DNA of 64,000 bases, from assembly GCA_947172415.1 (NCBI GenBank), contig OX359193.1, positions 3,528,501 to 3,592,500 on the forward strand, in the 5' to 3' direction. Below are positions 12,002-63,437 of this stretch, piece after piece. The notes beneath the pieces were generated by a model. It did not search any database and had not been told where the DNA came from. It worked only from the letters and a program-made list of their open reading frames with translations. The stretch is from Chondrosia reniformis (Eukaryota; Porifera; Demospongiae; Chondrillida; Chondrillidae). The number at the start of each line of letters is the position of its first letter. The stretch's first letter is position 1. Both the position numbers and the translations under genes were made by a program.

Positions 12002-12010
12002 ATCTAAATC

Positions 12011-15261: not shown

Positions 15262-15936
15262 ATGCTCAAGCTAGCTTCTTCAGCTATCACGAAGCCCATT
15301 GGCCTTATCTATCCATTGCAATCTGGTTTTCTCCCTGGCCACTCCACCACTACATCTTTGTTATTTTGTACTGATACTTGGTCCAAAGCCCTTGATTCTG
15401 GGAAGTTTGTAGCCACTCTGTTCATCGACGTGTCTAAAGCCTTCGACACAGTAAATCACACACTTCCTCTCCGCAAACTCACCACCCTGGGTCTTGATCC
15501 ATCTACCATGCAATGGTTTAGATCCTACCTAGCCAACCGTTCCCAATTCACTCATGTGGAAGGTCATACCTCTACCTCTCGATCTCTTTTTTCAGGTGTT
15601 CCCCAAGGATCCATCCTAGGCCCTTCCCTCTTCTCGGATTTCATTAATGATTTACCTGAGACCATCACTGACTCTACCACCATCCTATTTGCCGATGACA
15701 CCACTATATTCATTGCAGGCCATGATATCTCAAATATTACCAACACCCTGCAGAACTGTCTTAACCTTGTCAATCTCTGGATGAAATCAAATGGTCTCAA
15801 GTTAAACCCTCTGAAGACCAACTCCATGCTACTCCACTCTAGTCGTAAGACTAATCTTCCACCACTTAACCTCACCTTGGATGGTCACACTATTAAGCAA
15901 AGGTCCTCGGATCGAAACGTCCTGGAAATTAATTGA
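15262..15936 (+). CDS. Reverse transcriptase palm of the CR1/L2-like LINE (partial)
   Basis: A 224-codon frame. It contains SGFLPGHSTTTSLL, motif A FIDVSKAFDTVNH, motif B SGVPQGSILGPSLF, motif C FADDTTIFIAG and the K-rich NGLKLNPLKTN segment. These are the standard RT palm motifs and the FADD box is intact. The N-terminal fingers motifs (PVS-type) are missing through an internal deletion just upstream. The frame is lost at about 15936; the thumb region resumes near 16010 in another frame. Confidence 0.85.
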   Translation: MLKLASSAITKPIGLIYPLQSGFLPGHSTTTSLLFCTDTWSKALDSGKFVATLFIDVSKAFDTVNHTLPLRKLTTLGLDPSTMQWFRSYLANRSQFTHVEGHTSTSRSLFSGVPQGSILGPSLFSDFINDLPETITDSTTILFADDTTIFIAGHDISNITNTLQNCLNLVNLWMKSNGLKLNPLKTNSMLLHSSRKTNLPPLNLTLDGHTIKQRSSDRNVLEIN

Positions 15937-22507: not shown

Positions 22508-23091
22508 CAGCTAGTATATATAGCTAGAACTAGTACATCAACCTAGTACATTCAACTATTACTAACAACTAGTAACAGGAGCATACAAATAGTACATTGA
22601 ACTAGTACACACAGTATGCACATACTAGTAGTACATGCAACTAGTACATTTAACTTGTACATAAAATTAGTACCTCAAACTAGTACATACAACTAGTACA
22701 TTCAACAAGTAACGAGAACATACAACTAGTACATTGAACTAGTACATACAACTTGCAACCACAACTAGTACATACAAGTAGTAACTAGTACAACTAGTAC
22801 AGCTAGTACATATAGCTAGAACTAGTACATCAACCTAGTACATTCAACTATTACTAACAACTAGTAACAGGAGCATACAAATAGTACATTGAACTAGTAC
22901 ACACAATATGTACATACTAGTAGTACATGCAACTAGTACATTTAACTTGTACATAAAATTAGTACCTCAAACTAGTACATACAACTAGTACATTCAACAA
23001 GTAACGAGAACATACAACTAGTACATTGAACTAGTACATACAACTTGCAACCACAACTAGTACATACAAGTAGTAACTAGTACAATCAACT
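22508..23091. repeat. 292-bp tandem duplication in the satellite
   Basis: The stretch starting AGCTAGTA at about 22508 and passing AACAGGAGCATAC (about 22576) recurs 292 bp further on, with only a few differences (for example ACACAGTATGCA against ACACAATATGTA). It abuts and slightly overlaps the start of the larger duplication. Confidence 0.75.
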
Positions 23092-26000
23092 GGAACATAC
23101 AACTAGTACATACAACTAGGACAAATAACTGGTATATACAACTAGTTCATATCACTACTTCATAGAACAAGTACATACAAGTAGTATCTAGTATATATAG
23201 CTAGTACCTAACTAGTACCTAGTTTAACTAGTACTAGAACCTACAACTAGTCCATACAACCAGAACATACGCATATAACTAGTACATACAACTAGTAAAT
23301 ACAACTAGTACATACAACCATTACATACAATTAATATCTACAACTGACAATTATAACTAGAAATAGTACATTAAGCTTGTAAAGTACATACAACTAGTAC
23401 ATAAAACTAGGAGACACAACTACTACATATGACTAGTATATGCTTACACATATAACTGGCACATATAAAGAGTACAAACAACTAGTTCATACAACTAGTA
23501 CATACAACTAGTTCATTCAATTAGAACATACAACTACTACAAACAACTAGTAACTAGTACATACAACTATTACATACAACTAGGACATACAACTGGTATA
23601 TACAACTAGTTCATATAACTAATACATACAACTAGTACATGCAAGTAATATCTAGTACATATTGCTAGTACCTACCTAGTACCTAGTGTAACTAGTACTA
23701 GAACCTAAAACTAGTACATACAAGTAGTACATACACATATAATTAGTAAATACAACTAGTACATACAACTAGCACATACAACTAGTACATACAATTGGTA
23801 CCTACAACTTCTAAATATAACTAGTACTTGTAAATACAACTAGTGCATACAATTAGTACCTATAATTAATACCTACAACTAGTAAATCTTACAAGTACTA
23901 GTACATACCACTAGTTCATACAACTTGTACTTACAACTAGTACCTATGACTAGAACATACACAAATAACTAGTACATTAATATAGTACATACAACTAGTA
24001 AATTAAACTAGAACTCCAACTAGTAGGTAGAATTATTACATAAAATTAGTACATACATCAAATACATACAACTACTACATACAAGTAGTTCATACAACTA
24101 GAACATACAACTAGTACATACAACTGGCACATAACTAGTTCATAAAACTAGTGCATGCAATGAGAACATAAAACTACTACATACAACTAGAACATACAAC
24201 TAATACCTCCAACTAGTAAATATAACTTGTACTAGTACATACAACTAGTTCATACAACTAGTAAATAACTAGTGCATACAACTGATACCTACAACTAGTA
24301 AATGTAACTTGTACTAGTACATACGATTAGTTCATACAACTAGTATATAACTAGTACATAACTAGTACATACAGATCGTACCTACAAAAAGTACATACAA
24401 CTAGTACATACAACTAGTATATAAAATTAGTACATACAACTATTACATTCAACTAGTACTTACAACCAGTTCCTACAACTAGTTAACATAACTTGTACTT
24501 GTACATACAAGTAGTACATAGAACTAGTATTTACAACTAGTAAATAATACTAGTAATAGTACATGCAACTAGTTAATTCAACAACTACATACAAGTAGTA
24601 CATAACTAGTACATATACGTAGTATTTACAACTAGTACACACAATATGTACATACTAGTAGTACATGCAACTAGTACATTTAACTTGTACATAAAATTAG
24701 TACCTCAAACTAGTACATACAACTAGTACATTCAACAAGTAACGAGAACATACAACTAGTACATTGAACTAGTACATACAACTTGCAACCACAACTAGTA
24801 CATACAAGTAGTAACTAGTACAATCAACTGGAACATACAACTAGTACATACAACTAGGACAAATAACTGGTATATACAACTAGTTCATATCACTACTTCA
24901 TAGAACAAGTACATACAAGTAGTATCTAGTATATATAGCTAGTACCTAACTAGTACCTAGTTTAACTAGTACTAGAACCTACAACTAGTCCATACAACCA
25001 GAACATACGCATATAACTAGTACATACAACTAGTAAATACAACTAGTACATACAACCATTACATACAATTAATATCTACAACTGACAATTATAACTAGAA
25101 ATAGTACATTAAGCTTGTAAAGTACATACAACTAGTACATAAAACTAGGAGACACAACTACTACATATGACTAGTATATGCTTACACATATAACTGGCAC
25201 ATATAAAGAGTACAAACAACTAGTTCATACAACTAGTACATACAACTAGTTCATTCAATTAGAACATACAACTACTACAAACAACTAGTAACTAGTACAT
25301 ACAACTATTACATACAACTAGGACATACAACTGGTATATACAACTAGTTCATATAACTAATACATACAACTAGTACATGCAAGTAATATCTAGTACATAT
25401 TGCTAGTACCTACCTAGTACCTAGTGTAACTAGTACTAGAACCTAAAACTAGTACATACAAGTAGTACATACACATATAATTAGTAAATACAACTAGTAC
25501 ATACAACTAGCACATACAACTAGTACATACAATTGGTACCTACAACTTCTAAATATAACTAGTACTTGTAAATACAACTAGTGCATACAATTAGTACCTA
25601 TAATTAATACCTACAACTAGTAAATCTTACAAGTACTAGTACATACCACTAGTTCATACAACTTGTACTTACAACTAGTACCTATGACTAGAACATACAC
25701 AAATAACTAGTACATTAATATAGTACATACAACTAGTAAATTAAACTAGAACTCCAACTAGTAGGTAGAATTATTACATAAAATTAGTACATACATCAAA
25801 TACATACAACTACTACATACAAGTAGTTCATACAACTAGAACATACAACTAGTACATACAACTGGCACATAACTAGTTCATAAAACTAGTGCATGCAATG
25901 AGAACATAAAACTACTACATACAACTAGAACATACAACTAATACCTCCAACTAGTAAATATAACTTGTACTAGTACATACAACTAGTTCATACAACTAGT

Positions 26001-26376
26001 AAATAACTAGTGCATACAACTGATACCTACAACTAGTAAATGTAACTTGTACTAGTACATACGATTAGTTCATACAACTAGTATATAACTAGTACATAAC
26101 TAGTACATACAGATCGTACCTACAAAAAGTACATACAACTAGTACATACAACTAGTATATAAAATTAGTACATACAACTATTACATTCAACTAGTACTTA
26201 CAACCAGTTCCTACAACTAGTTAACATAACTTGTACTTGTACATACAAGTAGTACATAGAACTAGTATTTACAACTAGTAAATAATACTAGTAATAGTAC
26301 ATGCAACTAGTTAATTCAACAACTACATACAAGTAGTACATAACTAGTACATATACGTAGTATTTACAACTAGTAC
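22901..26376. repeat. 1738-bp tandem duplication in the satellite
   Basis: Copy 1 covers about 22901-24638 and copy 2 about 24639-26376. The landmark ACACAATATG is at 22901 and 24639, and the closing ATATACGTAGTATTTACAAC appears before 24638 and again before 26376. The stretches I compared are identical, although 13-mers elsewhere are very divergent. This means a recent segmental duplication or an assembly artefact. Confidence 0.85.
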
Positions 26377-30650: not shown

Positions 30651-30966
30651 TAGTGCATACAAGTAGTACATAAAACTAGTACATACAATTAGTACTTAAA
30701 ACTAGTACATAACTAGTAGATACAACTAATACAAACCTAGTTCATACAACTAGTGCCTACAGTTAGTAATTATTACCAGTACTAGTACAAACCACTAGTA
30801 CATACAACTAGTACCTACAACCAGTAAATATTACCTGCACTAGTACGTACAACTAGTACAAACAACTAGTGCCTACAGTTATTAAATCTTAATAGTACTA
30901 GTACATAACACTAGTTAATTCAACTTGTACATAACTAGTACATACAACTAATTTGCAGAACTTTTA

Positions 30967-31468
30967 CAGTGCAGTCCACTTAATTCGAATCTCCAGGGAA
31001 TCAAGAAAAATTTAAAATAAAAGGAATTTTGAATTATCAGGATTATGTACAAAATAGCAAAGTGATGTCTAAACAGCAAAGTGAAATATAGTGAAAAAGA
31101 GAAAATTACGCAACTTACTCAATAAAATTAGTTCTTTCCAGAGGGAGCGTTGTCCACAAGATGGATAATCTCTAGTTTTCGTTTGAGGGTAAGTGATTGG
31201 TACCGTGAAGGTTGCACAACTAGAGAATAACAATGCACTGAGAATGATTAATGATGATTTAGCTAAAAATCTTAACCGTTAAAGGTGCGATTGCCGCCTA
31301 TATAACTTTGAGGCTCGCTTATTTGTATTAACATACTTCCATATTCTCTACGAAATAAACGAAAATTCCCAAGAAATTGATGTACTGGGACTATACAGGG
31401 AACAGGGGTTCTATTTGCAATAGGCGAAATTTCGTCGAAAATGCATTAAAATTAAGTGGACTGCACTG
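30967..31468. mobile_element. pogo/Tc1-like MITE, copy 1
   Basis: A 502-bp non-coding element with terminal inverted repeats CAGTGCAGTCCACTTAATT at the left and its complement AATTAAGTGGACTGCACTG at the right. It is flanked by TA on both sides (30965-30966 and 31469-31470), the target duplication of the Tc1/mariner/pogo superfamily. CAGT-type ends favour pogo/Tigger. There is no transposase frame, so it would need an autonomous partner. Confidence 0.85.
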
Positions 31469-32197
31469 TATATACAATTAGTACATTTAACTATTACATT
31501 CAACTAGTACATATAACTAGTACTTACAACTAGTTAAAATAACTAGTACTTGTACATACAACTAGTACCTACTTAGTACCTAGTATAACTAATACTAGAA
31601 CCTACAACTAGTACATATAACTAGTTCATACAACTAGTACATACAACTAATACAAACAATTAGTACAAAGAAATAGTAAATGCAAATAGTACACACAACT
31701 AGTACTACAACTAATACAAAGGACTAGTACACACAATTAGTGAGTACAACTAGAAACTAGTACATACAACTAGTATATTGAACTAGTATATACAACTAGT
31801 ACATACTGCTAGTACGTACAACTAGTAACTATTACATGCAACTAGTACATGCAACTAATACATAGAACTTGTATATACTACTAGTGCATACAAGTAGTAC
31901 ATAAAACTAGTACATACAATTAGTACTTAAAACTAGTACATAACTAGTAGATACAACTAATACAAACCTAGTTCATACAACTAGTGCCTACAGTTAGTAA
32001 TTATTACCAGTACTAGTACAAACCACTAGTACATACAACTAGTACCTACAACCAGTAAATATTACCTGCACTAGTACGTACAACTAGTACAAACAACTAG
32101 TGCCTACAGTTATTAAATCTTAATAGTACTAGTACATAACACTAGTTAATTCAACTTGTACATAACTAGTACATACAACTAATTTGCAGAACTTTTA

Positions 32198-32699
32198 CAG
32201 TGCAGTCCACTTAATTCGAATCTCCAGGGAATCAAGAAAAATTTAAAATAAAAGGAATTTTGAATTATCAGGATTATGTACAAAATAGCAAAGTGATGTC
32301 TAAACAGCAAAGTGAAATATAGTGAAAAAGAGAAAATTACGCAACTTACTCAATAAAATTAGTTCTTTCCAGAGGGAGCGTTGTCCACAAGATGGATAAT
32401 CTCTAGTTTTCGTTTGAGGGTAAGTGATTGGTACCGTGAAGGTTGCACAACTAGAGAATAACAATGCACTGAGAATGATTAATGATGATTTAGCTAAAAA
32501 TCTTAACCGTTAAAGGTGCGATTGCCGCCTATATAACTTTGAGGCTCGCTTATTTGTATTAACATACTTCCATATTCTCTACGAAATAAACGAAAATTCC
32601 CAAGAAATTGATGTACTGGGACTATACAGGGAACAGGGGTTCTATTTGCAATAGGCGAAATTTCGTCGAAAATGCATTAAAATTAAGTGGACTGCACTG
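32198..32699. mobile_element. pogo/Tc1-like MITE, copy 2 (by duplication)
   Basis: Same sequence, ends and TA flanks as 30967-31468, exactly 1231 bp away. Because flanking satellite is duplicated too, this copy arose by segmental duplication, not by a second transposition. Confidence 0.85.
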
Positions 32700-33112
32700 T
32701 ATATACAATTAGTACATTTAACTATTACATTCAACTAGTACATATAACTAGTACTTACAACTAGTTAAAATAACTAGTACTTGTACATACAACTAGTACC
32801 TACTTAGTACCTAGTATAACTAATACTAGAACCTACAACTAGTACATATAACTAGTTCATACAACTAGTACATACAACTAATACAAACAATTAGTACAAA
32901 GAAATAGTAAATGCAAATAGTACACACAACTAGTACTACAACTAATACAAAGGACTAGTACACACAATTAGTGAGTACAACTAGAAACTAGTACATACAA
33001 CTAGTATATTGAACTAGTATATACAACTAGTACATACTGCTAGTACGTACAACTAGTAACTATTACATGCAACTAGTACATGCAACTAATACATAGAACT
33101 TGTATATACTAC

Positions 33113-33655
33113 TAGTTCATATAAGTAGTACATACAACAAGTACATACAAGTAGTACATACAACTAGCAAATATAACTAGTACTAGTACATACAACTAGT
33201 ACATACAATTAATACCAAACAACTAGTAAATATAACTAGAAATAGTACATGCAACTGGTAAACTACATACAACTAGTACATACAACTAGTACATACAACT
33301 AGTACATACAACTAGTTCATACAATTAGAACATACAACTACTACATAAAATTAGTACATACAACTAATACCTACAACTAGTAAATATAACTTGCACTAGT
33401 ACATACAACTAGAACATACAACTAGTCCCTACAACCAGTAAATATTACCAGCACTAGTACGTCCAACTAGTAAATGCAACTCCTACATACAACTAGTGCA
33501 TAAATTTGTACATACAACTATTACATTCAACTAGTACATATAACTAGTATCTACAACTGGTAAATATAACCAGTGCCTGTATATACAACTAGTACATACA
33601 ACAAGTGCCTACTGTTATTAAATATTACCAGTACTAGTACATACCACTAGTTAAT
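33113..33655. repeat. 13-bp satellite, block 5
   Basis: Degenerate 13-mers, with nothing else seen, up to the ribozyme-bearing insert. Confidence 0.95.
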
Positions 33656-33659
33656 ACCA

Positions 33660-33899
33660 CGATGGAAAAAATTGGGGAACTTTAAGATCTAAAGCTGATC
33701 TTAAAGCAAACTTCCATCGTATGCCATACTGATGAATCTTAATAAGGACGAAACAGCTGTCTATAGCTTGACCATCTTTTTGAGTCGCTAGGGGGAGACT
33801 CTGGTTCCCATCAAGTGAACTTCGGTTCCGCCCATTAGCTCATTGCGCTCCTCAGGGGACATGAGTGGGCAGGGGTAATACCCAGAGTTAAATGATGAT
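33660..33899 (+). mobile_element. Decayed retrozyme (hammerhead-bearing short element)
   Basis: About 240 bp of non-satellite DNA with the same order of parts as the 363-bp retrozyme units at 60874. An upstream hairpin (TTTAAGATC 33681-33689 with GATCTTAAA 33697-33705) is nested in CGATGGAA/TTCCATCG (33660-33667, 33712-33719). Then come a hammerhead core (33723-33767) and a downstream stretch alignable by eye with the dimer (CTCTGGTTCCCAT, ACTTCGGTTCCGCC against CACTGGTTGCCAT, ACTTCGGTCCCCC). It is a single unit with no coding potential. It is a diverged member of the same or a sister family. Confidence 0.7.
33723..33767 (+). ncRNA. Hammerhead ribozyme, type I, degenerate
   Basis: Core CTGATGA at 33729-33735, GAAA at 33750-33753 and ACAGCTGTC ending at 33761. 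Stem I GCCATA/TATAGC pairs except for one position. Stem II (ATCTTAATAAGGAC) is poorly paired compared with the intact copies, so activity is doubtful. Cleavage would follow the GTC at 33759-33761. Confidence 0.65.
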
Positions 33900-36205
33900 T
33901 AATACAACTAGTACATACAACTAGTACATACACCTAGTACATAACTAGTACATAACACTAGTGTGTAGAACTATTATATACAGTTAGTGCATACAACTAT
34001 TACATACAACTAGTACATATAACTAGTACCTACAACTAGTGAACATAACTAGTTCTTGTACATACAACTAGTACCTACTTAGTACATAGTATTACTAATA
34101 CTAGAACCTACAACTAGTACATATAACTAGTACATACAACTAGTACATACAACTAGTACATTCTACTAGTACGTACTACAAGTACAAACAAGTAATACAT
34201 ATAACTAATACATACAACTAGCACATACAACTAGCACATACAACTAGTACAAACAACTAGTTCATACAACTTGTACTTACAACTAGTACCTATGACTCGA
34301 ACATACACATACAACTAGTACATATTAAATAGTACATACAACTAGTAAATTAAAGTAGAACTCCAACTAGTACATAGAAATATTACATACTACACACAAC
34401 TAGTACATATAACTAGTACCACAACCACTACATACAACTAGTACTTTCAACTAGTACAAACAACAAGGACACACTACTAGTAAATATAGCTGGCAAATAT
34501 AACTAGTACATATGCCTAGTACATACAACTGGTACATATAAATAGTTCATATACCTAGTATATACAAGAAGTACATAAAACAAGTACCTACAACTAGTAC
34601 ATTTGGCTAGAACTAGTAGATAAAACTTGTGCATACAACTAGTACATACAACTAGTATATACAACTAGTACAAACAACGTTTATACACAACATGTACGTA
34701 GAACTAGTGCATATAAGTAGTACATATAACTAGTATAAACAACTAGTAACTAGTACAATCAACTAGTACAAACAACTAGTACATACAATTAGTGCCTTGA
34801 GTTAGTAAATATTACCAGTACTAGTACATACCACTAGTTAATACAACTAGTACATACCACTAGTTAATACAACTAGTACATACAACTAGTACATACAATT
34901 AGTATATACAACTAGTACATACAATTAGTATATACAAATAGTGCATACAACTAGTAGATACAACTAGTACATAACATTCGTATAAATAACTAGTACATAT
35001 ACCCAGCACCTACAACTGGTACATATAAATAGTTCATATACCTAGTATATTCAACAGGTACATACAACAAGGATATATAGCTAGTACCTACAACTAGTAC
35101 ATTTAACTAGAACTAGTACATAAAACTAGTATATACAACTAATTCTTACAAGTTTTATACATACGACTTATACTACAAACAATTAGTACAAACAAATAGT
35201 AAATACAACTAGTACACACTAATAGTACATACAACTAGAAACTAGTACATTCAACTAGTACATTCAACTAGTACATACAACTAGTACATACAACTAGTAC
35301 ATACAACGTTTACACACAACAGTACATAGCACTAGTGCAAATATGTAGTACATAGAACTAGTACAAACAATTAGTAACTAGTACATACAACTATTACAAA
35401 CAACTAGTACATACAACTGGTATTGACAACTAGTGAGTACATACAAGTAGTATCTAGTACATTTAACTAGTAGCTATCTAGTACCTTGTTTAACTAGTAC
35501 TAGAACCTACAACTAGTACATACAACTAGTACATACATATATAACTAGTAAATACAACTAGTATATCAAACTAGTGAATACAACTAGTACATGGAACTAG
35601 TAACAAATACACATAACCAGTACATAGAACTAGTACATAGAACGAGTACTATAACTAATACGAAGAACTAGTACACACAATTAGTACGTACAATTAGAAA
35701 CTAGTACATAAAACTAGTACATACAAATAGTACATAAAACTTTTATACACAACAGTACATAGAACTAGTGCAAATATGTAGCACATACAACTAGTACAAA
35801 CAATAAGTGCAAACAAATAGTAAATACAACTAGTACAAACAACTAGTACTATAACTAATTCAAAGAACTAGTACACACAATTAGTACGTAAGACTAGAAA
35901 CTAGTACATACAACTAGTACATTGAAATAGTACATACAACTAGTATATACATAGAACTAGTACGTAAAACTAGTACATACAAATAGTACATAAAACTTTT
36001 ACACACAACATGTACATAGAACTAGTGCATATAAGTAGTACATACAACTAGAACATACAACTAGTAACTAGTACATACAACTAGTACATACAACTAGGAC
36101 ATACAAGTGGTATATACAACTAATGAGTACATACAAATAGTATATCTAGTACATTTAACTAGTAGCTATCTAGTACCTAGTTAAGCTAGTACTAGAACCT
36201 ACAAC
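33900..36205. repeat. 13-bp satellite, block 6
   Basis: About 2.3 kb of degenerate 13-mers with local near-duplicate stretches (for example the ACACAACAGTACATAG neighbourhoods around 35320 and 35750). No genes. Confidence 0.95.
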
Positions 36206-36237
36206 CTACAAACGTTTCGACCCTGGGGGTCTTCTTC

Positions 36238-36277
36238 AGTCACTGAAGAAGACCCCCAGGGTCGAAACGTTTGGCAG
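36238..36277 (+). ncRNA. Hammerhead-like motif of PLE terminus
   Basis: CTGAAGA (CUGANGA core) at 36243-36249, an unpaired A, stem II GACCC/GGGTC with loop CCA, GAAA at 36264-36267, self-complementary ACGT, then TTGGC. Stem I (GTCA with TGGC) is about four pairs including one G-U. The extra A before stem II departs from the strict consensus, so 'hammerhead-like' is the safe label. The mirror copy lies on the minus strand at 36210-36240. Confidence 0.5.
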
Positions 36278-36299
36278 AACAGAAGAATTGAAAAAAACT

Positions 36300-40595: not shown

Positions 40596-42621
40596 AAACT
40601 AGTAAATACAACTAGTACTATATCAAACTAGTGCTTACAACTAGTACATGGAACTAGTAACGAGTACACATAACTAGTACATACAACTAGTACATATAAA
40701 TAGGACATACAACAAGTACATTCAACTAGTTCATTAAACTGGAACTACAACTAGTACATGGAATTATTACATACAACTAATACATATAACTAGTACATAA
40801 AAGTAGTAAATATAACTAGTACATACAACTACTACCTAAAACTAGTAAATATAACTAGTACTTAGCGTATAAAACTAGTACATACAATTAGTACATACAA
40901 TTAATACTTACAACTAGTTCATACAATTGGTACATATAACTTGTACATATGACTAGAACATTCACATATAACTAGTACATTTAAATAGTACATAGAAGAA
41001 GTACTTTCAACTACTTCATTAAACCAGAGCTACAACGCCTACATGGAATTATTACATACAACTAGTACATATAACTAGTACATACAATTAGTAACTACAA
41101 CTAGTACATACAACCAGTTCATAAAACTAGTAAATACAATTGGTATCTAAAAGTAGTAAGCATCACTAGTACTAGTACCTACAACTGGTAAAGTACATAC
41201 AATTAGCACATACAACTAGTACTTACAACTAGTACATACTACTAATTCATAAAATTAGAACATACTAGTACAACATGAACCTGGTCCATGCAACTAGAAG
41301 CTAGTACATAAAACTAGTACATAAAACTAGTACATACAACTACTACATACAATTAGTATATACAAATAGTACATACAACTAGTACATACAACTAATACAT
41401 ACAACTGGTACTCACAACTAGTTCAAACAACTTGTACATACAACTAGTTCATTAAACGGGAACTACAACTAGTACATGGAATTATTACATACAACTAATA
41501 TATATAACTAGTACATACAAGTAGTAAATATAACTAGGACACACACCTACTACATATAACTAGTACATAAAAATATAACTAGTACATATAAATAATGCAT
41601 CCAGATAGTACATACAACTAGTACATAAACCTGGTAAATACAACTAGCTTATACATAAAACTAGCACATTTAACTAGTACTTACAACTAGTATATATACA
41701 ACTAGTACATACAACTAGTACATACATTTAGTACGTACAACTACAACCTACAACCACTTCATACAACTAGCATCTACAACTAGTAAATATTGGTAGTACT
41801 AGTCCATAAAACTACTATATACAACTAGTACCTGCAACTAGTACTTATAAGTAGTCACACACCTACCACATATAACTAATACATAAAAATATAACTAATG
41901 TATATAAATAGTACATACACTTTGTGCATACAACTAGTTCATACAACTAGTTCATACAAATAGTACATAGTTAGTGCATACAACTAGTATATACATACAA
42001 CTAGTACACACAACTAGTGCATACAATTAATACATACAACTACTACATACAACTACTTCATACAACTAGCACCTACAACTAGTAAATATTGCTAGCACTA
42101 GTACATATAACTAGTACATACAACTAGTACTTGCAACTAGTACATATAACTAGTACACACACTTACTACATATAACTAATACATAAAAATATAGCTAGTA
42201 TATATAAATAGTACATACACTTAGTACATACAACCAGTTCATACAACTAGTACATACAACTAGTACATAGAAGGAGTAAAACAACTAAGACATATAACTA
42301 GTACACACACCTACTACATATAACTAGTAAATAAAAATAGAACTAGTACATATAAATAATGCTTCCAGATAGTACATACAATTAGTACATAAAACTAGTA
42401 CATACAACTAGCTTATACATAAAACTAGCACATTTAACTAGTACTTACAACTAGTATATATACAACTATGTAGTACATGCACCTAGTATATACAACAAGT
42501 ACATACAACTATAGTTCATAAAACTAGTACATACAACTAGTATATACAACTAGTTCATACAAATAGTAACAAGTACATATAGCTAGTACATGCAACTAGT
42601 AAATACAACTAGTACATACAA
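40596..42621. repeat. 13-bp satellite, block 8
   Basis: About 2 kb of 13-mers with several locally repeated passages (for example TATACAACTAGTACATAC near 41690 and again near 42455). No genes. Confidence 0.95.
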
Positions 42622-43306
42622 GAAAAATCTAATATACCATTTTCCTACATGCTATATGCCTATTCTGTAAAAAGAGCCTATAGGGGAACTAAACCTAAAG
42701 AGAGCTTTAGATGAAGATACAGGAGTCTTTTCTTCCTTCTTTTCCCTTCTTTCATCTTCTTCTCCACTGGGTCAGACAGCCGTTTCTGGGAATTCCACCC
42801 TTCATCAGTGATCCTGGGAGTCTTTGTCTTTTTCTTTATCTTGATCTTCTGTGAATCCTTGGCTCTCTATGCTAAATCTAGGGGCCTTATATAGACTATT
42901 TTGGCGCCAAAAGTTAAATAAGGTGTTAACTAAGACACATGATGAAATTTAATTTTATGAAAGGAATGTAGGTCCAATTAACTTTTATGAATTAATTATA
43001 AATCTATTAGTAAACTTGCTTGTACAGGTAAAACAGACTCAGCATAACTATAGACAAAAGTAGGACATATTACGTAAGTCTACCCTTAGGTCTTCTAGTA
43101 GTAACATTTCTTTGGAGGTGGGGTAACACAATATGGGGTAACACAAGACAGTCCTTAAGCATACTAGCTACTTTTTGCTTATACTTGATTCTAACTAGAG
43201 GCTGCCGGGATAGGAAGGTTTTAAAGGTTGATTTTAGCTTAAAGTATTTGTAACCCTGCTTAATAAGCCTATTGCATAACTGCAAACTTTTAGCCTGAAA
43301 ACTGGA
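42622..43306 (-). repeat. Naiad pseudo-LTR, left (3' end of the element)
   Basis: 685-bp direct repeat of 46086-46770 at a constant offset of 3464 bp. On the minus strand it holds the RT C-terminus (stop near 43070) and the 3' UTR with a CT-rich tract near 42720-42760. Confidence 0.9.
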
Positions 43307-44617
43307 GAAGTCACTACATATTCTGGAATACCTAATTAGTTGTGAAATAAAGACACCATAGGCTGGGGTATTAGGAATATTACTATCTAAATGGGGGAAA
43401 TTTACTATATCAAAGTTAAAGTCCTCTCGCTTATCATATACTTTAGTGATAAATTGATTGTTAGTAATGGTTATATCTTAGTCTAAAAAGGGGGATTTTT
43501 TAGGGCTGGTATTTGTCTTTTTAAGAATAAGTTCTTTGGGGTAAATATCACTAATTGACAGTTCAAAATCCTTGTTGTTAATACATAAAAGGTCATCAAT
43601 AAACCTATAAGTATTGGAAAATTTAATAGCTAGGGTGATGTTATCCTTAAGTAGTCCTTTCATAAACTCATACTCATAGGCAAACAGAAAAAGATTAGCA
43701 ACTACAGGGGCACAGTCAGTACCCATAGGGATACCTACACATTGCTTAAATACAGAACCGTCTACACATACATAAATGTTGTCAATAAGGTAATTAAAGA
43801 GCTCTACTAAATGAACAGCTGTGACTGCTTTATTGGAGACATTGTTAGACCAAAAGGCTTTATCCTGACAGACTTCTATATATTGGGACTTCCTACAGGT
43901 ATAGGCACTATGAATAAGGTTAGTAATCTTATCTTTAAGTAGGTTATGGGGGATCGCTGTATATAATGTAGAAAAATCAAAACTAGCTAGCTGGGTTTTT
44001 CTAGCGGGTATAGACCTAAGACTATCTAAGACTTCTAGTGAGTTTTCTACTATCCAAAAGGCATTAACACCAATATTCCTATATATACCTAGGCAGTATT
44101 CTCTAAAATGTTTGAGAATTAGTCTGAGTGCCGAATTTAGAAATCTAGAAAGGGGTTTGGTAGTACATTTTTGAGAAGCAGCTATGAATCTGTAGTTGTA
44201 AGGGTTCTTATGTAGCTTAGGCATCCAGTAAAAAGAGGGAAGGTTACACCAGTCTGGTTTAGGTTCTAAGTTCTCTAGTTTTAAGAAATCTATGTGTTTC
44301 CTAATTAACTGTTGTGGTTCTACTGTACATTTAGCATAAGTGGAGGTACTGCCTAGTTCTTCATTAATAATTTGTCTATAGTAGGACTTACATTTCAATA
44401 TTATATTATTAGAGGCCTTATGAGCAGGGGCTCTAACATACTTATCATGTAGGTCTGCTAAGAATTTCTTAATTTTAGGGCAAGTAAGGGTCTTCTTGGC
44501 TACTGAGGATTTGGTGTACAATTTAGACAGCTTAGAGATCCTATCATTAATTTTCTTAAGTACATTTTCTCTAGGGGCCCAGGTAATCTTATATTTTCTA
44601 AGACCTTCCTTACACAT
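43070..44617 (-). CDS. Naiad reverse transcriptase (broken)
   Basis: The main frame is 43478-44617 (379 codons), continued in the same frame beyond a stop to 43070. Telomerase-related PLE RT motifs are visible: FYWMPKLHKNPYNYRFI, motif A LASFDFSTLYTAIPHN, motif B GIPMGTDCAPVVANLFL and motif C YRFIDDLLCIN, then the C-terminal part (VYDKREDFNFDIVNFP and AYGVFISQLIRYSRICSDF). It would prime reverse transcription at the nick made by the linked GIY-YIG. Compared with the 62-kb copy it lacks about 14 codons near its start. The catalytic DD is present. Confidence 0.85.
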
Positions 44618-44671
44618 TTTTAAAGCAGTTACCCAATTAAAGTTATTAGGTTCTCTAAATTTTGGTCCTTT

Positions 44672-44911
44672 CTAAAGAAGTTTTCTAAGTTTTGGGTTAC
44701 TAACAATACATAGGTCACCTGTTAAAACATGACCCAGGGGCTTGTAAATGAAAGGGGACTTGTGACACTCACATGGTTCCGGTTTTCTAAAGACATCTGA
44801 CTTAGAGGCTTGTGAAAAGTTAAAGATTTGAGGTCCTATTGGTTGGGTATACTTATATACTACACATGGGGGCTCTTTGTTTTGTATAAAGGGTGGGACA
44901 GTTTCTAACAC
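44672..44911 (-). CDS. Naiad linker with CxC motif
   Basis: A 79-codon frame between endonuclease and RT. It contains KPEPCECHKSPFIYKPLGH followed by VLTGDL. The CxC motif in a short domain between EN and RT is the published hallmark of N-terminal-EN PLEs. The same linker is continuous with the EN tail and RT in the copy at 62036-63286, so its isolation here reflects breaks in this copy. Confidence 0.8.
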   Translation of the reverse strand: MLETVPPFIQNKEPPCVVYKYTQPIGPQIFNFSQASKSDVFRKPEPCECHKSPFIYKPLGHVLTGDLCIVSNPKLRKLL

Positions 44912-44946
44912 TAACTTTTGGTTTAAGATACCTGAGAGGCCTATTT

Positions 44947-45954
44947 TTATACACCTTTATTATGAAACACGATTTTAAGAAACCCTTCTGGACTTGTCAT
45001 TTTCGTTGGATGTTTGGGAAGGCTGGCTGAAGCGCGTGCTTTAATAACGTCTTTAATCATTAGCATAAGTCTAAGTGGAAAAGGTGTTTCTGGGGTATCG
45101 ATGAGACATTGTACCGAGTTTAACAAACGATGAAGGTGTCGAGCTTGTAACGCAAAAGTATCGCGTTTAAGTTTGACTAGAAAGCCCACGTTCTTGTAAA
45201 GTGATAGTCGTTCTTTGAGCCATTCAGGGTCGAAGGTAGCGTTATTATTACTGCCGGTCGATTTTAGATTGGAGCGCCGATACCGTCTTTTATGAGATAA
45301 GCGATTAAAAAGGTTCCATACAATGATTTCTTTTTTAAGTTTCGAAATATTGCCAACGCCTTTAATGTTATCGTTAAGTCCATATGGGTAAATGGAGCAG
45401 AGTTCCTTGTACCAGAACGCTTCTCTCAGTAGTCTGAGGCTAGTAGAATTAGGTGTCTCAGGTATCTGTTCTATGGGCATAATCAAGGCATCATCAAAAC
45501 TATGGTTATCAGAATTAAAGTGATTGTAAAGATACAGTGGCTTAAAACCTTTGGTACTAGTCCTATGGTTGTTCATTCTACTCCTAAGCATCTGAGAGGT
45601 TTCTCCTACATACTGTACATCACATTGTTTACAAGTAATAAGATACACAACATTCCTACTCTGGCATCCTAGGGGACCACAAGGGCTACGGACTTGATAG
45701 GTCCTGCCAGTAACTGAACTCTTAAAAGTAGGGCCAGTAACTAAAGAGGGACATGTTTTACACCGCTTATTGCTACACTTCTTAACTAGTGAGGGGCTAG
45801 CTTGCCCACCAGTAGGCACCCCTCTACCTACAGATGGGGGAGAGTTAGCTAACGTTTCATCACCAGGCACCCTACATTTACCTAATGACGGGGAGCTTGT
45901 TAACCCGGGCGACCTCCCAGCCGATATCCTATCTCTATACTTTGTACTTGTCAT
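44947..45954 (-). CDS. Naiad N-terminal GIY-YIG endonuclease
   Basis: 335 codons from an ATG at 45954. The order is a basic Ser/Pro-rich N-terminus (1-55), a Cys cluster CSNKRCKTC (60-68; first half of the PLE CCHH signature), the GIY-YIG fold NVVYLITCKQ...QYVGETSQ (101-121) with catalytic-type Arg in LRSRMNNHR, and the acidic helix RLLREAFWYKELCSIYP (about 174-190) bearing the likely metal-binding Glu. A C-terminal Lys/Arg-rich part then leads to the linker. It nicks target DNA to prime the RT. All named residues are present, so the domain looks intact although the downstream frame is not. Confidence 0.85.
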   Translation of the reverse strand: MTSTKYRDRISAGRSPGLTSSPSLGKCRVPGDETLANSPPSVGRGVPTGGQASPSLVKKCSNKRCKTCPSLVTGPTFKSSVTGRTYQVRSPCGPLGCQSRNVVYLITCKQCDVQYVGETSQMLRSRMNNHRTSTKGFKPLYLYNHFNSDNHSFDDALIMPIEQIPETPNSTSLRLLREAFWYKELCSIYPYGLNDNIKGVGNISKLKKEIIVWNLFNRLSHKRRYRRSNLKSTGSNNNATFDPEWLKERLSLYKNVGFLVKLKRDTFALQARHLHRLLNSVQCLIDTPETPFPLRLMLMIKDVIKARASASLPKHPTKMTSPEGFLKIVFHNKGV

Positions 45955-46085
45955 GATTGGAAATGGGTCAAGGACTAGACAAGCTAGTCCACAAAGACTT
46001 AACCTATTACATGTAGCCGGGGCTATTTAAAGGCAACAATAGCTCAACAGCCACCAGGGACTAACATGAGGCTAAGTAAACACAT
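45955..46085 (-). other. Naiad 5' leader between upstream pseudo-LTR and ATG
   Basis: About 130 bp of element sequence without a reading frame. It contains a run of CTAG/GACTAG-rich short repeats near 45965-45990. No promoter motif can be assigned. Confidence 0.5.
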
Positions 46086-46770
46086 GAAAAATCTAATATA
46101 CCATTTTCCTACATGCTATATGCCTATTCTGTAAAAAGAGCCTATAGGGGAACTAAACCTAAAGAGAGCTTTAGATGAAGATACAGGAGTCTTTTCTTCC
46201 TTCTTTTCCCTTCTTTCATCTTCTTCTCCACTGGGTCAGACAGCCGTTTCTGGGAATTCCACCCTTCATCAGTGATCCTGGGAGTCTTTGTCTTTTTCTT
46301 TATCTTGATCTTCTGTGAATCCTTGGCTCTCTATGCTAAATCTAGGGGCCTTATATAGACTATTTTGGCGCCAAAAGTTAAATAAGGTGTTAACTAAGAC
46401 ACATGATGAAATTTAATTTTATGAAAGGAATGTAGGTCCAATTAACTTTTATGAATTAATTATAAATCTATTAGTAAACTTGCTTGTACAGGTAAAACAG
46501 ACTCAGCATAACTATAGACAAAAGTAGGACATATTACGTAAGTCTACCCTTAGGTCTTCTAGTAGTAACATTTCTTTGGAGGTGGGGTAACACAATATGG
46601 GGTAACACAAGACAGTCCTTAAGCATACTAGCTACTTTTTGCTTATACTTGATTCTAACTAGAGGCTGCCGGGATAGGAAGGTTTTAAAGGTTGATTTTA
46701 GCTTAAAGTATTTGTAACCCTGCTTAATAAACCTATTGCATAACTGCAAACTTTTAGCCTGAAAACTGGA
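46086..46770 (-). repeat. Naiad pseudo-LTR, right (5' partial tandem copy)
   Basis: Near-identical copy of 42622-43306; the visible difference in the coding part is one Leu/Phe change in QLCNR(L/F)IKQ. It ends abruptly within the RT C-terminal codons at 46770, next to satellite, i.e. a 5'-truncated tandem unit. Confidence 0.9.
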
Positions 46771-59430: not shown

Positions 59431-60870
59431 ATGGCCCAGCCCTCACAACCAGCACCGTCCCCCCTAGCTGTCCCCTTATGGTGGGATGCAGTACAGCACT
59501 ACCCGGACAAACAACTGGTTCACTGGCTCTTAGAAGGGCTTCAATATGGCTTTCGCTGGCTGCAGCAGCTCCTGGCAGCAGCTCAAATCCGCAAGACCAA
59601 CATACCATCTGCCTATGAACACCCGGAGGTGGTGGAAGCATACCTTCTACCGGAATGTCAAAAAGGGCGGATACTAGGCCCATTCCCAGCTCCTCCACTG
59701 AGGCCCAGGCAGGTTAGTAGGTTTGGGATTATTCCTAAGCGATCCCAACCAGGAAAGTGGCACCTAATCCCGGACCTGTCATTTCCAGAGGACAGCAGTG
59801 TTAATACTGATGTCTCCAAAGAACTGAGCTCCCTGCGATACCTGTCCATAGACATTGCGGTGACACAGATCCTACAAGCAGGCAAGGATGCCCAACTCTC
59901 GAAACTCGACATCAAAGATGCCTATCACATCATTCCGGTACACCCAGAGGATTGGGGTTGATTAGGCATGCACTGGTAGGGCCAATACTTCCTAGATACC
60001 CGGCTACCATTCGGGCTACGCTCAGCACCCAAGATTTTTACAGCGCTGGCTGATGCAATCCAGTGGCTCATAAGGGAAAGAGGCGTAGAGTGCTGCATCC
60101 ACTACTTGGATGATTTCTTATTTGTGGAAAAGCCACATACCCCAGCACAAGCCCTCCACCTTGCCACAACCATCCTCACCGATCTGGGAGTCCCCCTGGC
60201 ACCCGAGAAAGTAGAAGGTCCAGACACGTGTCTAGTGTTCCTGGGCATTGAACTGGACAGCCAGACCATGACAGCGCACCTCCCCCAGGAAACACTTCAG
60301 TTCCTCGCAACCACCTTGAATACCTGGCAGGATAAGAAAGCCTGCAGAAAAAGGGAGCTTCTCTCCCTGCTAGGGGTCCTCTATTATGCAGCCATGGTTG
60401 TCCGTATTGGTAGAGTATTTGTATGTAGGATGATCGAACTGTCAAAACTTGCCAAGGAGGACCACCATTTCGTGCGACTGAATAAGGAGTTCCGATCAGA
60501 CCTACAGTGGTGGAGGACATTCCTTCCAAGGTGGAATGGTAGCAGTTTTCTACTTCCAGTGGTAACAGCATCCCCAGATGTCTGGATATATTCAGAGGCA
60601 TCGGGCTCATGGGGCTATGGAGCTTGGTCACCCTCCCCATATCAGTGGTTCCACGGCAGTTGGCCCAGTACCTGGGTGCCAAAGAACATAACCGCGAAGG
60701 AACTACTGCCTATTGTACTGGCCGCCGCTACATGGGGCCCTCAATGGCATCGTCTGTCGTTACGCTTTAGACGCAACAATACAGCAATAGTCCAGGCCAT
60801 CTCATCAGGTAAAAGCACAGAGCCGCTAGTTATCCACCTACTCAGAGGGCTACACCTATTACATAGAAGT
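59431..60870 (+). CDS. RT and RNase H region of the DIRS-like fossil
   Basis: RT landmarks: SRFGIIPKRSQPGKWHLIPD, SKLDIKDAYHIIPVHPED and YLDDFLFVEK (catalytic box LDD), then VFLGIELDSQTMTAHLP, the connection typical of DIRS and Ty3-like RTs. RNase H landmarks: VWIYSEASGSWGYGAWS and NITAKELLPIVLAAATW. The region is not intact and is one part of the fossil described under 56826-60870. Confidence 0.8.
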
Positions 60871-61013
60871 TGTAACTCCCTTTTTTCATTGTGAGCGCTC
60901 GGTCTCGCTTAGACTGCAGCCCTCCATCTTTGCTTATTATGAAACCACAAGTGTTTCACTTGTGGCTGATTAATAAGTGAAGACGGTCATCCAACTCACC
61001 ATCATTGAAGTGT

Positions 61014-61058
61014 ACCACACTGATGAGCCCAAATGAGGGCGAAACAGCTGTCTGTGGT
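61014..61058 (+). ncRNA. Hammerhead ribozyme, type I, unit 1
   Basis: Stem I ACCACA (61014-61019) with TGTGGT (61053-61058); core CTGATGA (61020-61026); stem II GCCC/GGGC with loop AAATGA (61027-61040); GAA then stem III ACAG/CTGT as a self-complementary octamer (61044-61051); C at 61052 as the cleavage residue (GTC). All conserved core positions are present. The zero-loop stem III suggests folding best as a dimer, as in PLE and retrozyme hammerheads. Confidence 0.9.
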
Positions 61059-61376
61059 TCTTTGATGAATTTTTTTCCATCTTGGATGACTGGGAGGCGA
61101 TCACTGGTTGCCATTTTTAATAGGACTTCGGTCCCCCAGCCAAGATTAGACTTCAGTCCCTTGGCTGGTTTGGCGTAATATCTTCCAGTGAATACTTTTG
61201 CTTATCATCCTAGCCTTTGCACAGCTCAGTGCAATTAACTCCCTTTTTTCATTGTGAGCGCTCGGTCTCGCTTAGACTGCAGCCCTCCATCTTTGCTTAT
61301 TATGAAACCACAAGTGTTTCACTTGTGGCTGATTAATAAGTGAAGACGGTCATCCAACTCACCATCATTGAAGTGT

Positions 61377-61421
61377 GCCACACTGATGAGCCCAAATGAG
61401 GGCGAAACAGCTGTCTGTGGT
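61377..61421 (+). ncRNA. Hammerhead ribozyme, type I, unit 2
   Basis: Same core as unit 1, 363 bp downstream: CTGATGA at 61383-61389, GCCC/GGGC stem II, GAAA, ACAGCTGTC. Stem I here is GCCACA with TGTGGT, which still pairs (one G-T wobble). Cutting at both sites would release a 363-nt monomer. Confidence 0.9.
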
Positions 61422-61615
61422 TCTTTGATGAATTTTTTTCCATCTTGGATGACTGGGAGGCGATCACTGGTTGCCATTTTTAATAGGACTTCGGTCCCCC
61501 AGCCAAGATTAGACTTCAGTCCCTTGGCTGGTTTGGCGTAATATCTTCCAGTGAATACTTTTGCTTATCATCCTAGCCTTTGCACAGCTCAGTGCAATTA
61601 ACTCCCTTTTTTCAT

Positions 61616-62035
61616 AGTACATACAACTAGTACATACTACTAGTATATACAACTAGTTCACATAACTAGTTAAAACAACAAATTCATACGACTAGTAACG
61701 AGTACAAACAACTAGTTCATAAAATTAGAAAATACAACCACTACTTACAACTAATACATAGAAGTTGTAAATGTCACTAGGAAATATAACAAGTGCTAGT
61801 ACATACAACTAGTGCCTACAACTAGTACATGCGACTAATAAGGAGTACATACACTAATAACTAATACATATAAATAGTACAAACATCTGGTACATAGAAC
61901 TAGTACAAAAACTAGTACATACAACTAATACATATATATAGTACAAATATCTGGTACATAGATCTAGTACAAACATCTGGTACGTAGATCTAGTACAAAA
62001 CTAGTACATACAACTAGTATATATAACTAGTACAT
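61616..62035. repeat. 13-bp satellite, block 15
   Basis: About 420 bp of 13-mers, with a twice-repeated ATCTGGTACATAGATCTAG-type passage near 61930-62000. Confidence 0.95.
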
Positions 62036-63286
62036 ATGCTCTATTTACCCATATGGACTTAACGATAACATTAAAGGCGTTGGCAATATTTCGAAACTTA
62101 AAAAAGAAATCATCGTATGGAACCTTTTTAATCGCTTATCTCATAAAAGACGGTATCGGCGCTCCAATCTAAAATCGACAGGCAGTAGTAATAACGCTAC
62201 CTTCGACCCTGAATGGCTCAAAGAACGACTACCACTTTACAAGAACGTGGGCTTTCTAGCCAAACTTAAACGCGATACTTTTGCATTACAAGCTCGACAC
62301 CTTCATCGTTTGTTAAACTCGGTACAATGTCTCATCGATACCCCAGAAACACCTTTTCCACTTAGACTTATGCTAATGATTAAAGATGTTATTAAAGGAC
62401 GCGCTTCAGCCAGCCTTCCCAAACACCCAACGAAAACGACAAGTCCAGAAGGGTTTCTTAAAATCGTGTTTCATAATAAAGGTGTAGAAAAAATAGGCCT
62501 CTCAGGTATCTTAAACCAAAAGTTAGTGTTAGAAACTGTCCCACCCTTTATACAAAACAAAGAGCCCCCATATGTAGTATATAAGTATACCCAACCAATA
62601 GGACCTCAAATCTTTAACTTTTCACAAGCCTCTAAGTCAGATGTCTTTAGAAAACCGGAACCATGTGAGTGTCACAAGTCCCCCTTCATTTACAAGCCCC
62701 TAGGCCATGTTTTAACAGGCGACCTACGTATTGTTAGTAACCCAAAACTTAGAAAACTTCTTAAGAAAGGACCAAAATTTAGAGAACCTAATAACTTTAA
62801 TTGGGTAACTGCTTTAAAAATGTGTAAGGAAGGTCTTAGAAAATATAAGATTACCTGGGCCCGTAGAGAAAATGTATCTATTTCTGTATTTAGTGAGTGG
62901 GAAAATACTGTACTTAAGAAAATTAAAGATAGGATCTCTAAGCTGTCTAAATTGTACACCAAATCCTCAGTAGCCAAGAAGACCCTTACTTGCCCTAAAA
63001 TTAAGAAATTCTTAGCAGACCTACATGATAAGTATGTTATAGCCCGTGCTGATAAGGCCTCTAATAATATAATATTTATATGTAAGTCCTACTATAGACA
63101 AATTATTAATGAAGAACTAGGCAGTACCTCCACTTATGCTAAATGTAGAGTAGAACCACAACAGTTAATTATGAAACACATAGATTTCTTAAAACTAGAG
63201 AACTTAGAACCTAAACCAGACTGGTGTAACCTTCCCTCTTTTTACTGGATGCCTAAGCTACATAAGAACCCTTACAACTACAGATT
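62036..63286 (+). mobile_element. Naiad-type PLE, copy 2, truncated at both ends
   Basis: Matches the element at 42622-46770 from the end of its GIY-YIG domain (SIYPYGLNDNIKGVG) through the CxC linker to RT residues NYRF, on the opposite strand. The GIY-YIG core, the RT catalytic motifs and pseudo-LTRs are missing. The junction with unrelated DNA at 63286/63287 is abrupt. Confidence 0.85.
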
Positions 63287-63437
63287 CAAAGGCAAGGCAA
63301 GAGGGATATCAGTCGATAATCAGATTGCTCTGAAGTTCAACTGCGGCTTTGCAAGAGTTGCTGCATACGAATTATTCGTTAACAAAAGGTACATTAATTG
63401 TATAATACAATACGTACGAAGTGAGACGATTAAATAA
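62041..63437 (+). CDS. Naiad copy 2: EN tail, CxC linker, RT N-terminus, fused to foreign sequence
   Basis: One uninterrupted frame from the left border of the fragment to a stop at 63437. Element part: basic EN tail (LKKEIIVWNLFNRLSHKRR), linker PEPCECHKSPFIYKPLGH with the CxC motif, then the RT N-terminal region (KDRISKLSKLYTKSSVAKK, VIARADKASNNIIF, FYWMPKLHKNPYNYRF). From 63287 about 50 codons are not element sequence. No start codon belongs to it because it is truncated. It is useful as the less damaged reference for this part of the family, retaining residues absent from the 44-kb copy. Confidence 0.8.

What the first reader, a model, noticed from the sequence alone, without database searches (positions are those of the whole stretch)
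60874..61615. Dimeric hammerhead retrozyme in an animal satellite array
Seen: two 363-bp units plus a stub of a third, each with a complete type I hammerhead (stem I, CTGATGA, 4-bp stem II, GAAA, self-complementary ACAGCTGT, GTC) and long complementary stems giving a rod-like fold. Known: metazoan retrozymes are short tandem hammerhead repeats transcribed to small circular RNAs and probably moved by PLE reverse transcriptases. Inference: this is an active or recently active retrozyme, since the units are almost identical and all core residues are intact.
Basis: partly seen in the sequence, partly recalled or inferred. Interest (0 to 1): 0.9.

Follow-up and report, generated by a model that had tools for sequence, protein, structure and literature searches.

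The report
Hammerhead retrozyme dimer with older relative
A short non-coding mobile element that should cut itself out of its own transcript and form small RNA circles sits as a fresh two-copy insertion in repetitive DNA, and an older, different-looking relative nearby appears to share an RNA fold next to the ribozyme, which hints at the part that the copying machinery recognises.

Summary
Window 60874-61615 is two 363-bp units (1 difference in 363) plus a 16-bp stub. Rfam Hammerhead_1 matches unit 1 just above its curated score (34.6 against 34 bits) and unit 2 just below it (31.5). The unit RNA is far more stable than shuffles (z -5.26) but branched, not a rod. Best reading: a metazoan-type retrozyme, a known kind, recently inserted. 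Expression and copy number cannot be tested; no genome is held. Against this, the whole second element is not predicted to fold that way. (3) A Penelope-like element with hammerhead motifs in both pseudo-LTRs (99.4% identical) lies 14 kb away; candidate mobiliser, but without the domain. New member of a known kind; the domain is the lead.

The parts
60874..61236 (+). retrozyme unit 1 (363 bp)
61237..61599 (+). retrozyme unit 2 (363 bp, 1 difference, in stem I of the ribozyme)
61600..61615 (+). 16-bp stub of a third unit (AACTCCCTTTTTTCAT)
61014..61058 (+). type I hammerhead ribozyme of unit 1; predicted cut between 61052 and 61053
   Evidence: Rfam RF00163 34.6 bits, E 6.9e-5
61377..61421 (+). 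type I hammerhead ribozyme of unit 2; predicted cut between 61415 and 61416
   Evidence: Rfam RF00163 31.5 bits, below the gathering score of 34
61053..61415 (+). the one 363-nt RNA that two cuts would release
   Evidence: from the two predicted cut sites; fold z -5.26
61101..61191 (+). three-way-junction domain, unit 1
   Evidence: model R1 built from the two unit copies; found by model R2 built from the 33 kb element, E 0.00074; forms in the whole-unit ensemble with probability about 0.8 (outer stem)
61464..61554 (+). three-way-junction domain, unit 2
60860..60875 (+). 16-mer TACATAGAAGTTGTAA at the 5' junction of the array (last 2 bases overlap unit 1); possible target-site duplication
   Evidence: only 2 copies in the window; suggestive only
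61755..61770 (+). second copy of that 16-mer, about 140 bp 3' of the array
33658..33898 (+). second, decayed retrozyme: 241-bp monomer inside the 13-bp satellite
33651..33657 (+). TTAATAC, 5' target-site duplication of the second element
   Evidence: uninterrupted CTAGTTAATACAACTAG at 26538, 34834, 34860
33899..33905 (+). TTAATAC, 3' target-site duplication of the second element
33724..33766 (+). degenerate hammerhead of the second element (mismatch at the base of stem II)
   Evidence: Rfam 22.4 bits, E 0.75, below gathering; core pattern exact
33798..33888 (+). three-way-junction domain of the second element
   Evidence: model R1 E 0.0014; same architecture when folded alone (z only -1.01); not formed when the whole element is folded
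42622..46770 (-). Penelope-like element, partial tandem (unit 3464 bp), GIY-YIG domain upstream of the RT, reading frame broken
46075..46770 (-). 5' pseudo-LTR of the Penelope-like element; hammerhead motif CTGATGA...GAAACGGCTGTC at 46272-46239
   Evidence: 99.43% identical to the 3' copy over 696 bp; motif read
42611..43306 (-). 3' pseudo-LTR of the Penelope-like element; hammerhead motif at 42808-42775 (the blast match runs 11 bp into the flanking satellite)
62037..63291 (+). internal fragment of the same Penelope-like family, 0.4 kb 3' of the retrozyme
   Evidence: 94.7% identical DNA to 45399-44182

Best explanation
This is a young non-autonomous metazoan-type retrozyme. Proposed cycle: the tandem array is transcribed; the two hammerheads cut at GTC, most easily as a double hammerhead in which the two self-complementary ACAGCUGU strands pair with each other; exactly one 363-nt RNA is released, closed into a circle by a host ligase, and copied for more than one turn by a reverse transcriptase supplied in trans, giving an insertion of 2 units plus a stub. 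Shown: the array, the ribozyme sequence and predicted fold, the RNA stability, the near-identity of units, the insertion footprint of a second element, and a domain with compensatory changes between two retrozyme lineages directly 3' of the ribozyme. Inferred: transcription, cleavage, circles, that a Penelope-like enzyme is the mobiliser, and that the shared domain is a recognition module.
For: Rfam type I hammerhead in both units; core pattern 3 in the window, 0 on average in 100 shuffles; unit RNA -125.9 against a mean of -94.5 kcal/mol, 0 of 100 shuffles as good; stops in 6 of 6 circular frames and GC 44.9%; stems I and II of both ribozymes form with probability about 0.8 and 0.96 in the 742-nt transcript; predicted homodimer is the double hammerhead, -38.5 against 2 x -16.5 kcal/mol; second element with a 7-bp target-site duplication and the empty-site sequence present 3 times; shared domain found in both directions, 8 of 22 scorable pairs changed on both sides against 0 or 1 in six slid controls; Penelope-like element with hammerhead motifs in 99.4%-identical pseudo-LTRs. 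Published metazoan retrozymes share size, type I hammerhead and tandem arrangement (PMC7229834, Results parts 1 and 2 of 3 and Discussion read).
Against: Unit 2 is below the Rfam gathering score. The energy gain on dimerisation is not special: 75 of 300 permuted helix III sequences gain as much, and helix III between the units has only 0.11 probability in the folded transcript. The complementary strand folds as stably (-125.1 against -120.3 kcal/mol as circles), so stability does not single out the ribozyme strand. The double hammerhead is not the predicted dimer of the second element or of the Penelope-like motif. The shared domain is not predicted in the whole-element fold of the second element and is not found in the Penelope-like element. 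No clear target-site duplication directly flanks the array on both sides. No expression data; no genome held.
Confidence: 0.9

Rival explanations
1. Ordinary satellite DNA: the two units arose by unequal exchange or replication slippage, and the hammerhead is a passenger with no transposition cycle.
For: The window is rich in tandem repeats; two near-identical units would also result from a recent tandem duplication or gene conversion.
Against: The divergent second element is a dispersed monomer with a 7-bp target-site duplication, and its domain differs by compensatory changes, which suggests selection on the RNA.
Confidence: 0.05
2. The array is a retrozyme but is moved by another reverse transcriptase (LINE, R2-like or DIRS-like; these names are mine, from recall) of which the window also holds copies, not by the Penelope-like element.
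For: Other reverse-transcriptase reading frames at 8714-12010 and 14938-15936 (Pfam RVT_1 above cut-off) and 59980-60894 (just below it). The shared domain is not found in the Penelope-like element. The 15-bp Nematostella duplications were likened to LINEs in PMC4918200 (passage).
Against: Among the CTGATGA sites listed, only those of the two retrozymes and of the Penelope-like pseudo-LTRs were seen to continue into a hammerhead core, the latter with a near-self-complementary helix III (ACGGCTGT). The 3' ends of the Penelope-like element and of the array both follow TTTTTC, but 2 of 363 unit positions do, and the second element has no TTTTTC, so this is weak.
Confidence: 0.4
3. The 3' end of the insertion is not at 61615: the insertion runs to 61754, carrying about 140 bp of satellite from the source locus, and the 16-mer at 60860 and 61755 is its target-site duplication (a 3' transduction).
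For: The 16-mer has only two copies in the window and the first lies at the 5' junction. Two-copy 16-mers recurring within 160 bp are found at 27 of 10208 satellite positions. Size resembles the 15 bp reported for Nematostella.
Against: Counting any 16-mer, 586 of 10208 satellite positions show such a recurrence, so chance is about 6% by the looser test; the test was chosen after the fact.
Confidence: 0.35
4. A viroid-like or delta-like replicon integrated by accident.
For: Circular-RNA architecture with a hammerhead.
Against: Hammerhead on one polarity only (both strands scanned); no frame open round the circle; a second lineage with a target-site duplication in the same DNA.
Confidence: 0.02

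Closest known systems
Metazoan non-LTR retrozymes (PMC7229834), above all mussel (350-390 bp) and axolotl (330 and 350 bp)
   Same: Type I hammerhead, non-coding tandem unit of a few hundred bp, GC below 50%, stable RNA, Penelope-like elements in the same genome.
   Different: A dimer next to an unrelated 13-bp satellite; two divergent lineages side by side share a three-way-junction domain with compensatory changes. PMC7229834 calls the repeat sequences species-specific; the words 'conserved domain' and 'three-way' do not occur in its main text. Its supplement was not seen.
Hammerheads in pseudo-LTRs of Penelope-like elements (Anolis PAc, PMC11167929, main text read)
   Same: Hammerhead upstream of the 3' end of the insertion; partial tandem copies. 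By coordinates the 3' ends here lie 153 nt (Penelope-like), 200 nt (retrozyme) and 137 nt (second element) 3' of the predicted cut.
   Different: PAc has its GIY-YIG domain after the RT; the element here has it before the RT, an order that I recall for the Naiad/Chlamys type (that paper is not held). The retrozyme has no protein.
Newt satellite hammerhead (known to me through its summary in PMC7229834)
   Same: Short self-complementary helix III suited to cleavage as a dimer.
   Different: Helix III here is an 8-nt palindrome that could form 2 bp with a tetraloop on its own.

Membership tests
Metazoan retrozyme | type I hammerhead with intact core | tested here: met
   (unit 2 below gathering score)
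Metazoan retrozyme | tandem repeats of about 150-450 bp | tested here: met
   363 bp, 2 units + stub
Metazoan retrozyme | non-coding, GC below 50% | tested here: met
   stops in 6 of 6 circular frames, GC 44.9%
Metazoan retrozyme | highly self-paired, stable monomer RNA | tested here: met
   z -5.26, 0 of 100 shuffles as good; but 61% paired, no more than shuffles and under the 70% quoted in PMC4918200
Metazoan retrozyme | target-site duplication longer than 4 bp, when present | tested here: inconclusive
   array: a 16-mer repeat that may or may not be one; second element: 7 bp, met
Metazoan retrozyme | no LTR, primer-binding site or polypurine tract | not tested
   no search for these motifs was made; ARAGORN lists no tRNA in the unit
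Metazoan retrozyme | many dispersed copies in the genome | not testable with these tools
   no genome held; no other copy of the unit in the window
Metazoan retrozyme | expressed as linear and circular RNA | not testable with these tools
   no RNA data
Metazoan retrozyme | host is an animal | not testable with these tools
   inferred from the kinds of mobile elements, by recall
Plant LTR retrozyme | type III hammerhead in LTRs, copies a few hundred to 1000 bp apart | tested here: not met
   type I; unit 363 bp
Viroid-like / delta-like agent | ribozymes on both polarities | tested here: not met
   Rfam match on the plus strand only
Penelope-like element with N-terminal GIY-YIG (the neighbour at 42622-46770) | GIY-YIG domain upstream of RT in one element with pseudo-LTRs | tested here: met
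   Pfam GIY-YIG E 8.4e-5 (above cut-off), RVT_1 E 1.3e-4 (below cut-off), order and pseudo-LTRs; assignment to Penelope-like elements is by recall, not by a tree

The most novel reading that the evidence does not exclude
Unrelated-looking retrozymes of one genome share a three-way-junction domain, kept by compensatory changes, directly 3' of the hammerhead, and this domain is the handle by which the enzyme that spreads them (reverse transcriptase or ligase) recognises the circular RNA. If so, retrozymes are not just any RNA circle: they form a family with a common recognition module that can be searched for.
Probability: 0.3. Interest if true: 0.65.

Novelty: new member of a known kind. Interest (0 to 1): 0.48.

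Why it matters
How animal retrozymes move is unsettled; PMC7229834 only proposes Penelope-like elements as a strong candidate. A young dimer, an older relative with a clear insertion footprint, a hammerhead-bearing Penelope-like element and a domain with compensatory changes, all within 64 kb, give concrete sequences for testing which enzyme copies the RNA and what it recognises. A shared domain would also give a way to search for retrozymes whose hammerhead has decayed.

Tried and rejected
Pattern scans for the ribozyme core in viral contigs (3 stretches) and genome contigs (35 stretches): 0 of 38 had both stem I of at least 5 bp and stem II of at least 3 bp, so all were taken as chance. A stricter core pattern and a domain pattern in viral contigs: 0 matches each. 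Relatives of the Penelope-like RT in viral contigs: 13 stretches matched a pattern, none was confirmed. These collections hold viral, bacterial and archaeal sequence, so the misses say little about animals. MAFFT alignment of the two whole elements was poor outside the ribozyme and its 5' side and was not used. For the shared domain, sequence alone is weaker than sequence plus structure: 4 of 2939 random window stretches and 5 of 1000 mononucleotide shuffles score as high.

Shared TTTTTC at the 3' ends of the retrozyme and the Penelope-like element: the 8-mer TTTTTCAT is rare (3 places on each strand), but in the wider contexts tried the observed junction is not the single best place and 2 of 363 unit positions follow TTTTTC, so it is only a lead. 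The apparent 17-bp duplication around the Penelope-like element has 89 copies in the window and says nothing. The dimer-energy control did not separate the real helix III from permuted ones (75 of 300). A rod-like fold was rejected. Other Rfam hits with E up to 10 (microRNA families, NEAT1_2) are all below their gathering scores, and the 3 tRNA hits lie outside the elements; neither was pursued. Literature: 'retrozyme' with 'UUCG' 0 papers; 'hammerhead ribozyme', 'satellite DNA', 'bivalve' 0 papers; 32 papers since 2017 hold 'retrozyme', seen as a listing with starts of abstracts. PMC7761336 and PMC4918200 were seen as passages only.

Full report
What is there. Window 60874-61615 holds two 363-bp units that differ at 1 of 363 positions, followed by 16 bp of a third. 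No other copy of the unit was found in the window (blastn with 7-base words). Each unit has a type I hammerhead: stem I ACCACA/TGTGGT (GCCACA/TGTGGT in unit 2), CTGATGA, stem II GCCC/GGGC, GAAA, the palindrome ACAGCTGT, and GTC. Rfam RF00163 scores 34.6 bits in unit 1 (gathering score 34, E 6.9e-5) and 31.5 bits in unit 2. The core pattern occurs 3 times in the window and on average 0 times in 100 shuffles; the third place is the second element below.

Fold. The cut-to-cut monomer 61053-61415 folds at -125.9 kcal/mol against a mean of -94.5 for shuffles (z -5.26, 0 of 100 as good). As a circle it reaches -120.3 against -88.8 (sd 4.3) for 60 shuffles, with 7 hairpins and 61% of bases paired, the same fraction as shuffles (60%); the complementary strand is as stable (-125.1). 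The RNA is stable and branched, not a rod. In the 742-nt transcript stems I and II of both ribozymes form with probability about 0.8 and 0.96. Two copies of the ribozyme are predicted to form the double hammerhead, with ACAGCUGU paired to ACAGCUGU and swapped stems I (-38.5 against 2 x -16.5 kcal/mol). The energy gain itself is not unusual: 75 of 300 helix III permutations gain as much, and helix III between the two units has only 0.11 probability in the long transcript. Cleavage as a dimer is plausible, not shown. With two cut sites the array could release exactly one 363-nt RNA.

A second retrozyme. At 33658-33898 a 241-bp insert interrupts the 13-bp satellite. It carries CTGATGA...GAAACAGCTGTC with the same helix III, but stem II has a mismatch at its base and the Rfam score is only 22.4 bits, below gathering. 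It is flanked by TTAATAC on both sides; the 7-mer alone is common (22 + 3 places), but the empty site CTAGTTAATACAACTAG occurs uninterrupted at 3 other places in the window. I read this as an insertion with a 7-bp target-site duplication. The element is a decayed monomer; as inserted its RNA is only weakly more stable than shuffles (z -2.04, 6 of 200 as good).

A shared RNA domain. 3' of the ribozyme, 61101-61191 folds into a three-way junction with a C(UUCG)G-capped arm (alone z -3.78, 0 of 200 shuffles as good; in the whole unit outer stem about 0.8, UUCG arm about 1.0). A covariance model built only from the two identical unit copies finds 33798-33888 in the second element at E 0.0014, its only other hit in 64 kb at E up to 10, and none in 301,611 bases of 38 unrelated loci. 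The reciprocal model, built from the second element with its own isolated minimum-energy structure less one isolated pair, finds both units at E 0.00074 and nothing else. The tool calls these E-values rough. Between the two lineages 98% of 50 cells pair; of 28 pairs, 6 have a gap, and 8 of the other 22 are changed on both sides; six slid controls give 0 or 1, and 2 of 500 shuffles reach the observed value. The alignment was fitted to the model, which favours pairing, and only two lineages are compared. Sequence alone is weaker evidence (4 of 2939 random stretches and 5 of 1000 shuffles score as high). Against the reading: the second element's domain folded alone is hardly more stable than shuffles (z -1.01, 32 of 200 as good), and in the fold of the whole second element it does not form (probability 0.0); that copy is decayed, but this is not proof that decay is the reason. 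The order ribozyme-then-domain is the same in both, 48 and 36 nt after the predicted cut. Neither model has a hit in the Penelope-like element or elsewhere in the window. In PMC7229834 (Results parts 1 and 2 of 3 and Discussion read, main text searched) the terms 'conserved domain' and 'three-way' do not occur; 'retrozyme' with 'UUCG' gave 0 papers. Supplements were not seen.

A candidate partner. On the minus strand at 42622-46770 lies an element that I take as Penelope-like, in partial tandem: pseudo-LTRs 99.43% identical over 696 bp (4 mismatches), unit length 3464 bp, GIY-YIG (Pfam E 8.4e-5) upstream of the RT (RVT_1 E 1.3e-4, below the curated cut-off), reading frame broken. Each pseudo-LTR holds CTGATGA...GAAACGGCTGTC with a near-self-complementary helix III. 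Rfam does not report it at E up to 10, the base of its stem II is A-A as I read it, and the double hammerhead is not its predicted dimer, so it is a minimal or weak hammerhead at best. A fragment of the same family (94.7% identical) begins 0.4 kb 3' of the retrozyme; the larger copy is 14 kb 5' of it. PMC7229834 names Penelope-like elements as a strong candidate for mobilising retrozymes. In PMC11167929 (main text read) such an enzyme starts copying inside its RNA, and ribozyme cleavage is not needed in vitro; that last point weakens any simple tie between hammerhead and copying. Here the 3' ends lie 153 nt (Penelope-like), 200 nt (retrozyme) and 137 nt (second element) 3' of the predicted cuts. 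The first two follow TTTTTC, as do 2 of 363 unit positions, and the second element has no TTTTTC, so this is a lead only.

Insertion site. 5' of the array is a truncated reading frame with RT similarity (59980-60894, RVT_1 E 2.2e-6, just below cut-off) that I call DIRS-like from recall; 3' is the 13-bp satellite. The 16-mer TACATAGAAGTTGTAA lies at the 5' junction (its last 2 bases overlap unit 1) and recurs at 61755, with no other exact copy in the window. Of 10208 satellite positions, 586 have a 16-mer that recurs within 160 bp, 27 if only two-copy 16-mers count. It may be a target-site duplication with about 140 bp of transduced satellite, or chance. PMC4918200 reports 15-bp duplications in Nematostella (passage).

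Judgement. By the features that could be tested, the array is a member of the metazoan retrozyme class and a recent insertion. That it makes circles, that a Penelope-like enzyme copies it, and what the shared domain binds are inferences. The organism is not known to me; 'animal' is inferred, by recall, from the kinds of mobile elements present.

Noticed in passing
8714-12010 (-): An uninterrupted 1098-aa reverse-transcriptase reading frame (Pfam RVT_1 E 4.3e-29), R2-like by recall, with broken relatives between 36826 and 40056.
   Followed up: no
7840-64000, many segments: A degenerate 13-bp satellite (AACTAGTACATAC) makes up much of the window (a strict one-orientation mask gives 20,560 bp in 55 segments) and flanks several mobile-element insertions.
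   Followed up: partly
30664-33357 and 23081-26208: Stretches of satellite repeated at fixed spacings of 1231 bp (for example 31468/32699) and 1738 bp (for example 23081/24819), seen in the blast and tandem-repeat tables.
   Followed up: no
5084-5220 and 36203-36280: Strong inverted repeats that score as microRNA precursors far below the Rfam gathering scores; they may be short inverted-repeat transposons.
   Followed up: no
1-1181: A 254-bp tandem repeat of 4.7 copies, followed by 23-bp tandem arrays up to about 7.8 kb.
   Followed up: no
42622-46770 (-): Penelope-like element with the endonuclease domain before the reverse transcriptase and a hammerhead motif in both pseudo-LTRs that Rfam does not report.
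   Followed up: partly
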